The notes under the pieces: generated by a model
Database searches by the model: none
Told to the model about the DNA's origin: nothing
What the model saw: the letters and a program-made list of their open reading frames with translations, nothing else
Made by a program: the position numbers and the translations under genes
In this document: one piece after another, positions 8,077 through 18,695 of the stretch
Layout: the number at the start of each line of letters is the position of its first letter
Numbering within the stretch: the first letter of the stretch is position 1
Virus record (IMG/VR): IMGVR_UViG_3300020220_000221
Span: 1-30,580 of that record
Strand: one strand, 5' to 3'
Source: a virus
DNA: 30,580 nucleotides

Positions 8077-8877
8077 ATGAAAGACAAAACATTAGGGCCA
8101 CACATTAATCAAGACGAGATACAATTTTATTTAAGAGATATAAGAAAAATAAAAGTCATGACTCCTGAGAGGGAAAAAGAACTGGCAAAACTTATGAAGT
8201 CAGATTCCTTATCTCAAAGAGAAAGATCAACTATAGAGGAAGAGTTGTTGACAGGTAATCTCAGATTTGTCATTACTGTTGCAAAACAATATCAAAATCA
8301 AGGATTAGATTTTCCCGATTTAATTGCCGAAGGTAACTTAGGACTTATGAAGGCAATCAAAAATTTTGATTGGAATAAAGATTTAAGATTTATATCCTAC
8401 GCAGTATGGTGGGTTAAGCAGTCAATTATCCAATCGTTAAACGATAATTCAAGAACCATACGTCTACCTGTAAACGTAGTACAAGATTTACAGAGAGCAA
8501 AAAAAGAAGTAGAAAATAGTGGAAAAAAATTAGATGACAAGTTTAGTACATTACCATCAATCGTTGATTTAGATATGACAATAAGTGAGGATGGAGATAC
8601 TTTAGTTGATTTAATTGCAAATCAAGATGCTGAAGCTCCTGATGCGGCATTTAACACAAAAGATATACTTAAAGATAAATTGATGAGTTTATTGGATGTT
8701 TTAGATGAAAGAGAAAAAATTATTGTTGGTGATTATTTTGGTCTCACAGGAACCCCAAGAACCTTAGAAGATATTGGAACTGATTTTGGTTTAACAAAGG
8801 AACGAGTTAGACAAATCAAAGAAAAAGCCCTACGTCGTTTGAGAAATGACTCTTCAGAATTATTTGATTATTTATAG
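8077..8877 (+). CDS. RNA polymerase sigma-70 family factor (RpoD-like)
   Basis: A 266-residue sigma factor resembling the short primary sigma of Bacteroidota (about 287 residues, no region 1.1). Region 1.2 is at about 12-43. Region 2 is at about 57-128, with NLRFVITVAKQYQNQGLDFP and FISYAVWWVKQSI, the core-binding and -10-melting helices. Region 4 is at about 206-257, with the helix-turn-helix TLEDIGTDFGLTKERVRQIK. Region 3, between RTIRLP and LVDLIAN, is shortened by roughly 20 residues compared with the host protein as I remember it, so the HTH of sigma domain 3 is likely missing. It would bind host core RNA polymerase and redirect it to phage promoters. It lies 10 nt after the preceding gene and is followed by a structured RNA region and terminator. 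Confidence 0.92.
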   Translation: MKDKTLGPHINQDEIQFYLRDIRKIKVMTPEREKELAKLMKSDSLSQRERSTIEEELLTGNLRFVITVAKQYQNQGLDFPDLIAEGNLGLMKAIKNFDWNKDLRFISYAVWWVKQSIIQSLNDNSRTIRLPVNVVQDLQRAKKEVENSGKKLDDKFSTLPSIVDLDMTISEDGDTLVDLIANQDAEAPDAAFNTKDILKDKLMSLLDVLDEREKIIVGDYFGLTGTPRTLEDIGTDFGLTKERVRQIKEKALRRLRNDSSELFDYL

Positions 8878-8979
8878 TCGGGTTGAACCGAGATTACCCT
8901 TACAACTCGGCAGAAGGTGCCTGAAGTCACCAAGGTGCAATTCCTCAATTCTATCCAAATGGTAGAATGAAACTACACT
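8878..8979 (+). ncRNA. candidate structured RNA (3' UTR or small RNA) with predicted pseudoknot
   Basis: About 100 non-coding nt between the sigma-factor stop and the terminator, visibly more GC-rich than its surroundings. An H-type pseudoknot can be drawn: GGGT (8880-8883) with ACCC (8896-8899), and CCGAG (8888-8892) with CTCGG (8906-8910). An alternative hairpin pairs TCGG with CCGA around GTTGAA. Further hairpins: GGTG (8916-8919) with CACC (8928-8931), and ATTCTA (8948-8953) with TAGAAT (8963-8968), extended by CC/GG across a one-base bulge. GGTGC occurs twice. It matches no family I can name; pistol ribozyme, tRNA and hammerhead were considered and rejected. It could be a processed small RNA, a 3' UTR stability element or a riboswitch-like element. 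Confidence 0.5.
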
Positions 8980-9012
8980 CCCCCACCGGTACCAGTGGGG
9001 GTTTTTGTTTTT
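8980..9012 (+). terminator. strong intrinsic terminator
   Basis: Stem CCCCCAC (8980-8986) pairs with GTGGGGG (8995-9001) around an 8-nt loop, followed by TTTTTGTTTTT. It is the most GC-rich element in the window and ends the sigma-factor and structured-RNA transcript. Confidence 0.92.
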
Positions 9013-9016
9013 ATAA

Positions 9017-9040
9017 AAATTAAAAAGTCACTTTTAATTT
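9017..9040. repeat. AT-rich inverted repeat upstream of the membrane protein gene
   Basis: AAATTAAAA and TTTTAATTT flank AAGTCAC-like centre bases, giving a near-perfect inverted repeat 35 nt before the ATG at 9075. It may be an operator or part of a promoter. In AT-rich DNA chance palindromes are common, so confidence is low. Confidence 0.3.
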
Positions 9041-9074
9041 ATTTATTTTAATATTTATCAATAAAAGAAATCAA

Positions 9075-10172
9075 ATGAATAAAAAATTTTTACCATGGTT
9101 TTTACTTTTTTGTGCAATAGGACTTTCGAGTACAGCCGCTTATTATAGTGTAATTGGATTGTCTATTATTTTTTCTGCAGTTGCAATCCCTGTCATAATT
9201 ATGGGGTCTTTTTTGGAAATATCTAAAATTGCAATTGCAACATACCTACATGATAAATGGAAAGAAACATATGGAATTTTAAGAATATATTTAACAATTG
9301 CATTAGTAACCCTTTCAGTTCTTACATCAATTGGAATTTATGGACTCCTTTCAACTGGTTTTCAAAAAAACATTGCAGGTTTGGAAATTAATAATAAAAA
9401 AATTGAAAACATAGAAGTTAAAAAAACAAGATTTGAAGAAATCAAAGGAGAATATCAAAAAGAAAAAACAACACTAGATAAAGATATCACAAACCTAAGA
9501 AATGCACTCTCAACAAATACAACTACTCAAACAGTTGATAGAACAACAGGACAAGTTGTGACCAGAGCAAACGGGGGCAACCGAAAAGCATTCGAATCTC
9601 AATTGAAGGTCGCACAAACTAATAGAGACACATTGTCTAAAAAAATTGAAAATATTAATGATAGTATTACTAAGTTAGACCTGTTAGTTTTGGATTTAAC
9701 TTCACAAGAAATAGAATCAGGGGAATTGGGTGCCATCAAATACCTTAGTGAAATTACAGGATGGAACGTAAAAAAAACAGCAAATTTCTTTATATTAACT
9801 TTGATATTTGTTTTTGATCCTTTAGCAATAGCGTTAGTCATTTCAACCAATCAAGCATTTAAAAATTTCATAAGAAAAGAAGAAGATGAGGTAGAACCAA
9901 TTTATGATGAAGTCGAAGTTCCTGAAAGTTACTTCTACCCCATTAAATCAAAAGTTACTACACAAGTTGAGCCTGAGGTAATTGAAAAAATTGTAGAGGT
10001 ACCTGTAGAAAAAATTGTAGAAGTAATCAAAGAAGTACCTGTAGATAGAATTGTAGAAGTAATTAAAGAAGTGCCTGTAGAAATTATCAAAGAAGTTGAA
10101 AAAGAAAAACAACCAATTGAACAAGAAACAGATATTGAGCAAAATAAAAAAAAGTTAATATATAAAAAATGA
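9075..10172 (+). CDS. multi-pass membrane protein with central coiled coil and repeat tail
   Basis: A 365-residue protein. Three hydrophobic segments lie near residues 6-26, 29-50 and 72-95, followed by a coiled-coil domain at about 100-215. A fourth membrane segment (NFFILTLIFVFDPLAIALVI) is near 235-255. The acidic C-terminal tail ends in the V/E/K/P repeat (VPVEKIVEVIKE units). I recall proteins of this layout in many T4-like and marine myophages, where they are annotated only as membrane or coiled-coil proteins. It opens the lysis region: its stop overlaps the amidase start in ATGA. A holin-like or envelope-associated role is possible but unproven. It follows the strong terminator, so it needs its own promoter in 9013-9074. 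Confidence 0.75.
   Translation: MNKKFLPWFLLFCAIGLSSTAAYYSVIGLSIIFSAVAIPVIIMGSFLEISKIAIATYLHDKWKETYGILRIYLTIALVTLSVLTSIGIYGLLSTGFQKNIAGLEINNKKIENIEVKKTRFEEIKGEYQKEKTTLDKDITNLRNALSTNTTTQTVDRTTGQVVTRANGGNRKAFESQLKVAQTNRDTLSKKIENINDSITKLDLLVLDLTSQEIESGELGAIKYLSEITGWNVKKTANFFILTLIFVFDPLAIALVISTNQAFKNFIRKEEDEVEPIYDEVEVPESYFYPIKSKVTTQVEPEVIEKIVEVPVEKIVEVIKEVPVDRIVEVIKEVPVEIIKEVEKEKQPIEQETDIEQNKKKLIYKK
9999..10106 (+). repeat. three tandem 36-nt coding repeats
   Basis: Units at 9999-10034, 10035-10070 and 10071-10106 encode VPVEKIVEVIKE, VPVDRIVEVIKE and VPVEIIKEVEKE. The first two differ at only a few bases, which suggests recent duplication or slippage. Confidence 0.85.
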
Positions 10173-17866: not shown

Positions 17867-18034
17867 ATGGGTAAAATAGGAAGACCAAAAAAAAATGAAA
17901 AAAATAAAAAGGTAAAATACGGCATCAGTATTGATCGATTTTTATTTGATAAAATGAAAAATGAAGAAATAAGCATTTCTAAATTCATACAAAATTTAGT
18001 TAAGGAGTATTATGAAAAGAAAGAAATTCAATGA
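17867..18034 (+). CDS. ribbon-helix-helix (Arc/MetJ/CopG-type) DNA-binding protein
   Basis: A 55-residue protein. After a basic opening with GRPKKNEKNKK, the segment VKYGISIDRFLFDKMKNEEI followed by SISKFIQNLVKEYYE has the pattern of a ribbon-helix-helix repressor: a beta strand, helix A, a turn with S-x-S-x-F-I, and helix B. Such proteins bind operators as dimers. The gene overlaps the start of the LAGLIDADG endonuclease gene by 23 nt, so the two are translationally linked; it may control the endonuclease. Promoter not clear; TATAAAAT precedes the ATG by one base. Confidence 0.6.
   Translation: MGKIGRPKKNEKNKKVKYGISIDRFLFDKMKNEEISISKFIQNLVKEYYEKKEIQ
18002..18007 (+). promoter_or_regulatory. 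Shine-Dalgarno-like site of the homing endonuclease
   Basis: AAGGAG lies 4 nt before the ATG at 18012. Nearly all other genes in the window lack such a site, as expected for a Bacteroidota phage. It is inside the coding sequence of the ribbon-helix-helix gene (codons for Lys-Glu), so it might be coincidental. Confidence 0.4.
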
Positions 18035-18695
18035 AGATTACTTTGAAATAATAGATACGGCTGAAAAAGCGTATTTTCTTGGTTTTATTTTTGCGGATGG
18101 GTGTTTAATTGATAATCCAAAAGAATATAGATATAAATTAAATATTAAAATTAATAATAAAGATGAAAAAATACTTGAAAGGTTTATATCGTTATTAGAT
18201 AGTGATGTTGAAATATGGAGAAGTAAAAAAAGAGATATTTCTGAAGTTGGATTCTCTAGTAAAAAAATGATAAATGATTTAAAAAATATTGGAATACACC
18301 AAAATAAAACATACACAATTGAATACCCTGAAATTAATGAAAAACTCGAAAGACATTTTTTACGAGGATATTTTGATGGTGATGGGTGTATTAGAATTAA
18401 TGAAGATAAACGAGGTCAATATAAACGAGGAGACCTAAGAATTGTTGGTGGTTCAGTTAAGTTTATAAAAACTTTAAACGATAGGATGGGTAAACTGTTT
18501 GGGGTTAATGTTAATAAACTTTATGGGCCAAAAAATAAAGAATATAAATTTATTGGTTGGGCGGGTATGTCTGATATTGAAAAAATCTACAAAGGATTTT
18601 ATTCTGATACTGACTTGTTTTTGATTAGGAAAAAAATTATCTTTGATGAGGTTATAGGTATAATCAGAGAAAAATATAAATACAGAAAAAAATAA
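18012..18695 (+). CDS. LAGLIDADG homing endonuclease
   Basis: A 227-residue endonuclease with two LAGLIDADG dodecapeptide motifs: AYFLGFIFADGC (about 20-31), where FIFADG carries the catalytic Asp, and HFLRGYFDGDGCI near 113-126. A two-motif, monomeric architecture that makes a double-strand break at a long target and promotes copying of its own gene. It appears free-standing; no intron or intein splice features are seen. It overlaps the ribbon-helix-helix gene by 23 nt and ends 5 nt before the methylase frame that lacks an ATG, so its insertion site is probably at or near the start of that gene. Confidence 0.88.
   Translation: MKRKKFNEDYFEIIDTAEKAYFLGFIFADGCLIDNPKEYRYKLNIKINNKDEKILERFISLLDSDVEIWRSKKRDISEVGFSSKKMINDLKNIGIHQNKTYTIEYPEINEKLERHFLRGYFDGDGCIRINEDKRGQYKRGDLRIVGGSVKFIKTLNDRMGKLFGVNVNKLYGPKNKEYKFIGWAGMSDIEKIYKGFYSDTDLFLIRKKIIFDEVIGIIREKYKYRKK

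What the first reader, a model, noticed from the sequence alone, without database searches (positions are those of the whole stretch)
8878..9012. Structured RNA candidate between the sigma-factor gene and its terminator
About 100 nt with no open frame contains an H-type pseudoknot pairing (GGGT/ACCC with CCGAG/CTCGG), two further hairpins and a repeated GGTGC, then the strongest terminator in the window. The region is clearly more GC-rich than its surroundings, which in an AT-rich genome is a mark of selected RNA structure. It matches no family I could name. Downstream of a phage sigma factor it could be a processed 3' UTR small RNA, a regulator of sigma expression, or a decoy for host RNA polymerase.
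Basis: partly seen in the sequence, partly recalled or inferred. Interest (0 to 1): 0.68.

Follow-up and report, generated by a model that had tools for sequence, protein, structure and literature searches.

The report
New pseudoknotted RNA of Bacteroidota phages

Summary
Window 8880-9001 holds a non-coding RNA: an H-type pseudoknot (GGGU/ACCC crossed with CCGAG/CUCGG), three hairpins and a terminator. Rfam 15 has no match. Pattern and profile searches found the element in 92 other IMG/VR contigs, all apparently large Bacteroidota-infecting phages, and found no real copy in about 85,000 prokaryote genomes, INPHARED or PLSDB.

On 55 distinct sequences, all three hairpins covary strongly. A pair that extends the first pseudoknot stem switches A-U/U-A at least 7 times. 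The core stays about 94% identical where the adjacent sigma gene is about 70% identical (about 50% at third codon positions).

The RNA is not tied to the sigma gene. It abuts the stop codon of sigma or of several unrelated genes, or it has its own Bacteroidota promoter. In seven contigs it lies at other loci, facing a convergent gene where read in full. It was single-copy wherever counted, and many close relatives lack it. This fits a trans-acting accessory RNA better than a cis-regulator of sigma.

The mechanism is unproven. My best guess is a protein-binding RNA used in host takeover or counter-defence. I class it as a new RNA family of a known general kind (phage-encoded structured sRNA).

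The parts
8880..8883 (+). P1 5' strand of the pseudoknot (GGGU), pairs with 8896-8899
   Evidence: Invariant in 55 of 55 distinct sequences. The flanking pair (base before GGG with base after CCC) covaries A-U/U-A: 54 of 64 paired, 0 of 10,000 permutations as high, at least 7 switches on the sigma tree. The window itself lacks this extra pair (C and U).
8888..8892 (+). P2 5' strand of the pseudoknot (CCGAG), pairs with 8906-8910
   Evidence: Invariant in 55 of 55. A scan that left these five bases and their partners free found no other letters.
8896..8899 (+). P1 3' strand (ACCC)
8906..8910 (+). P2 3' strand (CUCGG), followed by the conserved joining segment CRGAA (8911-8915)
8916..8931 (+). 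P3 hairpin with an 8-nt loop holding an invariant GA
   Evidence: Covariation in 4 of 5 pairs, with GC, AU and UA all used; 7-11 changes per inner pair on the sigma tree.
8933..8945 (+). P4 hairpin, short stem with a T-loop-like UGMAANY loop; replaced by other loops in L082, L096 and L120
   Evidence: A-U, G-U and G-C exchange at the outer pair, 18 changes on the sigma tree
8948..8968 (+). P5 hairpin, followed by the conserved GAAA
   Evidence: 4 of 8 pairs have changes on both sides; 10-11 changes at the two best pairs
8980..9012 (+). Intrinsic terminator: stem 8980-9001 and T tract. Sequence is lineage-specific (different terminators in L082 and L096), so not part of the conserved core
8077..8877 (+). 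Upstream gene: sigma-70 family factor (regions 1.2, 2 and 4); its stop codon ends 2 nt before the RNA core
   Evidence: Pfam PF00140, PF04542, PF04545; phrog_351
9075..10172 (+). Downstream gene: coiled-coil membrane protein of unknown function (judged from its sequence), a syntenic marker 163-628 nt (970 nt in one case) after the start of the RNA in most phages
   Evidence: tblastn synteny; no Pfam, PHROG or PADLOC match

Best explanation
This is a small, stand-alone, trans-acting structured RNA, roughly 120-160 nt, belonging to a family not yet listed in Rfam and encoded by large Bacteroidota-infecting phages. Shown here: the structure by covariation, the extreme conservation of the pseudoknot core, independent placement in the genome, a promoter of its own in many phages and a terminator of its own. 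Inferred: in phages such as this one it is made as the 3' end of the upstream gene's transcript, either by processing or by a promoter hidden in the coding end, much as 3'-UTR-derived bacterial sRNAs are; elsewhere it is a separate gene. Inferred with less certainty (about 0.35): the invariant pseudoknot core is a recognition surface for a protein, probably of the host, and the RNA sequesters or redirects that protein during infection as an accessory takeover or counter-defence factor.
For: Covariation of P3, P4, P5 and the P1 closing pair. RNA core about 94% identical and whole RNA 82-84%, against 70-80% for the sigma gene and 50-58% at third codon positions (part of the core is fixed by the search pattern, but a scan on another part of the RNA recovered the same set plus only 3 close variants). 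Position: in 35 of 56 distinct contexts it starts -1 to 17 nt from the stop codon of an upstream gene (sigma or several unrelated genes) without a promoter box; in 16 a TAnnTTTG box lies 19-31 nt before it (about 0.03 expected per site). That box is the Flavobacterium sigma-A -7 element, placed at -12 to -5 (PMC9723704), so transcripts would start about 7-18 nt before the core. In L082, L088, L096, L120, L123, L151 and L163 it lies at another locus; where read in full, its terminator meets a convergent gene, so there is no gene in cis to control. Single copy in every large record where it was found; absent from near-300-kb relatives; at least 7 gains or losses on the sigma tree. G-U pairs are tolerated, which favours RNA over a DNA element.
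Against: No transcript data were available, so expression is inferred from promoter and terminator. P1 inner pairs and P2 never vary, so covariation cannot confirm them pair by pair, and an alternative helix GGGUUG/CAACUC is possible (favoured by the pseudoknot-free fold); it is broken by the insertion in L234/L235 and by the C-A mismatch in L008/L010. No protein partner is known. Gene content separated RNA+ from RNA- phages no better than chance would (6 against 5 group-specific families). The protein-binding step is inference only.
Confidence: 0.6

Rival explanations
1. It is a cis-acting 3' UTR element of the sigma gene (stability, termination or translational coupling).
For: In the window and about 20 other distinct contexts it starts 2-17 nt after the sigma stop codon and is followed by a terminator.
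Against: It follows unrelated genes in other phages, has its own promoter in 16 contexts, is kilobases away from sigma in several phages, and is missing after sigma in many close relatives.
Confidence: 0.08
2. It is a riboswitch or other regulator of the downstream coiled-coil gene, with the terminator as expression platform.
For: The downstream gene has the same orientation in most phages.
Against: In the L082 and L096 types the next gene is convergent; other genes are inserted in between in many phages; no conserved anti-terminator partner for the terminator stem was seen; the terminator itself is swapped between lineages.
Confidence: 0.05
3. It is a catalytic (self-cleaving) RNA that trims the 3' end of the upstream transcript and its own 5' end.
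For: Pseudoknot plus many invariant unpaired A and G residues; tight abutment to stop codons of different genes, as expected if it needs to free itself from any upstream mRNA.
Against: No match to any known ribozyme family; copies with a promoter 19-31 nt upstream would not need a cut; no biochemical data.
Confidence: 0.12
4. It is an RNA mimic that neutralises a host RNA-protein defence, like the pseudo-ToxI of phage PhiTE against the type III toxin ToxN.
For: H-type pseudoknot; accessory, patchy distribution; a precedent for a phage pseudoknot RNA in this role exists (PMC3475682).
Against: No tandem repeats, single copy, no Rfam antitoxin match, and no similar sequence in about 85,000 prokaryote genomes at the pattern level.
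Confidence: 0.15
5. It is a DNA-level element (origin, packaging or recombination site) that happens to be palindromic.
For: Single copy, very conserved and GC-rich.
Against: G-U tolerance, same-strand promoter and terminator, and absence from many close relatives.
Confidence: 0.03

Closest known systems
3'-UTR-derived bacterial sRNAs (own-promoter and processed types)
   Same: Sits directly after a stop codon, ends at the intrinsic terminator of that transcript, and in other genomes has its own promoter.
   Different: The core is a conserved pseudoknot with many invariant bases and it changes its host gene; no base-pairing target or chaperone is known.
Type III antitoxin RNA ToxI and phage PhiTE pseudo-ToxI (PMC3475682)
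   Same: Small phage-borne RNA with an H-type pseudoknot, accessory to the phage.
   Different: No tandem repeats, no toxin gene, longer with three extra covarying hairpins, no Rfam match.
Pistol ribozyme (from my own knowledge)
   Same: A hairpin whose loop forms a pseudoknot with the strand that follows.
   Different: No enclosing P2 helix, no pistol core letters; Rfam search negative.
GOLLD and ROOL RNAs (PMC12286853, abstract only; phage association from my own knowledge)
   Same: Structured non-coding RNAs without a protein-coding role.
   Different: Those are large, ornate RNAs that form homo-oligomers; this one is about 100 nt before the terminator and unrelated in sequence.

Membership tests
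Any Rfam 15 family | Score above the family's gathering threshold | tested here: not met
   No hit in the window or in eight divergent or related loci; weak E-value matches are terminator or AT-rich chance
Type III toxin-antitoxin RNA | Tandem repeats of a short pseudoknot unit | tested here: not met
   No tandem or direct repeats
Type III toxin-antitoxin RNA | Toxin endoribonuclease gene directly downstream | tested here: not met
   Downstream gene has no Pfam, PHROG or PADLOC match; in other phages the next gene is convergent
Cis-regulatory leader or riboswitch | Lies in the 5' UTR of the gene it controls, in the same orientation, in all members | tested here: not met
   L082, L088, L096, L120 and L151 face convergent genes
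3'-UTR-derived sRNA | Location directly after a stop codon and shared terminator | tested here: met
   35 of 56 distinct contexts, -1 to 17 nt after the stop codon
3'-UTR-derived sRNA | Discrete processed or primary transcript | not testable with these tools
   Needs RNA-seq; promoter boxes support primary transcripts in 16 contexts
3'-UTR-derived sRNA | Regulates target mRNAs by base pairing | not tested
   No target search was made
Self-cleaving ribozyme | Cleaves itself at a fixed site | not testable with these tools
   Only the absence of known ribozyme families was tested

The most novel reading that the evidence does not exclude
A new catalytic or ligand-binding RNA class: the invariant pseudoknot with its conserved A/G-rich joints is an active site or binding pocket, used by jumbo phages either to release itself from any mRNA it follows or to sense or sequester a host factor.
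Probability: 0.2. Interest if true: 0.88.

Novelty: new variant of a known kind. Interest (0 to 1): 0.66.

Why it matters
It appears to be an undescribed RNA family in abundant lake phages that infect Bacteroidota, a host phylum with unusual promoters and translation initiation. A covariance model, alignment and contrasting RNA+ and RNA- phage pairs are now in hand, so its expression and partner can be tested directly in public metatranscriptomes or in the laboratory. The core changes far less than the neighbouring sigma gene, which implies strong selection on a function nobody has named.

Tried and rejected
Rfam with relaxed thresholds on the window and on divergent copies gave only chance matches. 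Five matches in bacterial genomes were chance, by spacing and by what follows, most apparently in coding sequence. A scan with the P2 helix letters free returned only known copies, and a final loose scan for insertion variants added only chance hits. L174, L176, L178 and L179 were rejected as chance. Searches of INPHARED and PLSDB found nothing real. Comparing gene content of four RNA+ and three RNA- large phage records found six RNA+-only families, but five RNA--only families by the same test, so no partner gene is claimed. A Shine-Dalgarno-like AGGUGA in P4 was considered and dropped, because it is absent from the window and from the divergent copies. A phage-promoter motif (ATATTTAT) upstream of some copies was seen but not established. 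A similarity of the T-loop hairpin to SAM-I and cobalamin riboswitch segments was recalled from memory and not supported by Rfam.

Full report
What is there. The window is a 30,580-base IMG/VR virus record. Its reading of the pseudoknot was exact: GGGU 8880-8883 pairs with ACCC 8896-8899, and CCGAG 8888-8892 with CUCGG 8906-8910. Behind it are three hairpins, P3 8916-8931, P4 8933-8945 and P5 8948-8968, and a terminator at 8980-9001. The 135-nt stretch is the GC peak of the window, 47% against 29%. Folding energy alone would not have convinced anyone (z = -2.2).

It is a family. In 80 related sigma loci the bases after the sigma stop fall into two sets: about half hold this element, the others hold unrelated sequence. 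Pattern scans of IMG/VR found it in 92 contigs besides the window: 87, three more, two more. A scan with the P2 letters left free gave nothing else, and a very loose last scan gave only chance matches, so the family has a sharp edge. It was not found in about 85,000 prokaryote genomes beyond five chance matches, nor in INPHARED or PLSDB. Rfam 15 has no family for it.

The structure is real. On 55 distinct sequences (A1), 95.3% of pair cells are standard pairs against 35-52% when the partners are slid by one to three columns, and 125 cells are changed on both sides against 40 in shuffles. P3, P4 and P5 all covary. The inner pseudoknot pairs never vary, which by itself proves nothing, but the pair flanking P1 (base before GGG, base after CCC) is A-U in 36 and U-A in 18 of 64 distinct sequences; no permutation of 10,000 matched that, and the sigma tree needs at least 7 switches. 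The RNA could have recombined relative to sigma, which would inflate that count. The most divergent copies, L234 and L235, carry AAGGG/CCCUU in P1 and an insertion in the third loop that breaks the competing helix GGGUUG/CAACUC. G-U pairs are used freely, which points to RNA rather than DNA.

The core is under unusual constraint. Between phages whose sigma proteins are 60-75% identical, the sigma genes are 70% identical (50% at third positions), while the first 40 columns of the RNA are 94% and the whole RNA 83% identical. The search pattern fixes part of the core, so the figure is somewhat inflated; but the scan, made on other parts of the RNA, returned the same set with only three near-identical core variants.

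It is an independent gene. In most phages it lies between sigma and the coiled-coil gene, but 7 to about 1,450 nt after sigma (2,905 in one case), with other genes inserted. Of 56 distinct upstream contexts, 35 place it -1 to 17 nt from the stop codon of an upstream gene, which is sigma or one of at least three unrelated genes, with no promoter box; 16 have a TAnnTTTG box 19-31 nt before it (chance expectation 0.03 per site). That is the -7 element of Flavobacterium sigma-A at -12 to -5 (PMC9723704), so transcripts would start about 7-18 nt before the core. In L082, L088, L096, L120, L123, L151 and L163 it is at other loci with its own promoter; in those read in full its terminator meets a convergent gene (part of that output was cut). 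In G027, G028, G031 and G032 the sigma gene is elsewhere in the same record. It was single-copy in the large records where it was found. These facts exclude a riboswitch of the downstream gene as a general role and make a sigma-specific cis role unlikely.

It is accessory. Near-300-kb relatives G001, G002 and G016 lack it, and on the tree of 80 sigma genes its presence needs at least 7 to 10 gains or losses; some apparent absences are in fragments. L049 and L055 against L051 and L057 show the interval between sigma and the coiled-coil gene as a hot spot: flanks 94-97% identical, contents exchanged. Five of seven large records carry ribosomal protein bS21, and size and tRNA numbers fit the Bacteroidetes-infecting lake phages of PMC9723584, so these are probably the same group of phages or close to it. 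A word search of that paper's main text found no mention of non-coding or intergenic RNA.

What it does. I commit to a trans-acting RNA made from the 3' end of an upstream transcript or from its own promoter, with the invariant pseudoknot as the functional surface. The most likely use is binding a host protein during infection (about 0.35). Rivals that stay open are self-cleavage (0.12) and mimicry of a host defence RNA as in PhiTE (0.15; PMC3475682). A search for co-occurring genes gave no partner.

Verdict. This is a new RNA family of a known broad kind, with strong evidence for existence and structure and weak evidence for mechanism.

Noticed in passing
L049:3790-3990, L055:2564-2760, also L051 and L057: A second candidate non-coding RNA directly after the same sigma gene in four contigs: Bacteroidota promoter (TTTTGG ... 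TATCTTTG) followed by about 130 nt conserved at 97% with no evident gene; found in only four IMG/VR contigs. No Rfam hit.
   Followed up: partly
L096:900-970 (minus strand) and the same place in L120 and L151: In these copies the RNA continues with a further conserved tail (GCGGAYAACCGATTAGWTCACAAGCTCAGACAA) before its terminator, so this subgroup makes a longer RNA of about 160 nt.
   Followed up: no
interval 8878-9074 and its equivalents: The interval between the sigma and coiled-coil genes is an accessory hot spot that gains and loses small genes and RNAs between phages with 94-97% identical flanks.
   Followed up: partly
G027 and G017 (loci L242-L256 and L316-L331): ARAGORN reports tmRNA-like genes in two of the large phage records beside up to 25 tRNAs; these could be false positives.
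   Followed up: no
9040-9074: Upstream of the coiled-coil gene an AATATTTATC-like motif recurs in related phages and may be a phage promoter element.
   Followed up: no
18012-18695: Endonuclease related to homing enzymes (phrog_4645), directly before a DNA adenine methyltransferase gene.
   Followed up: no
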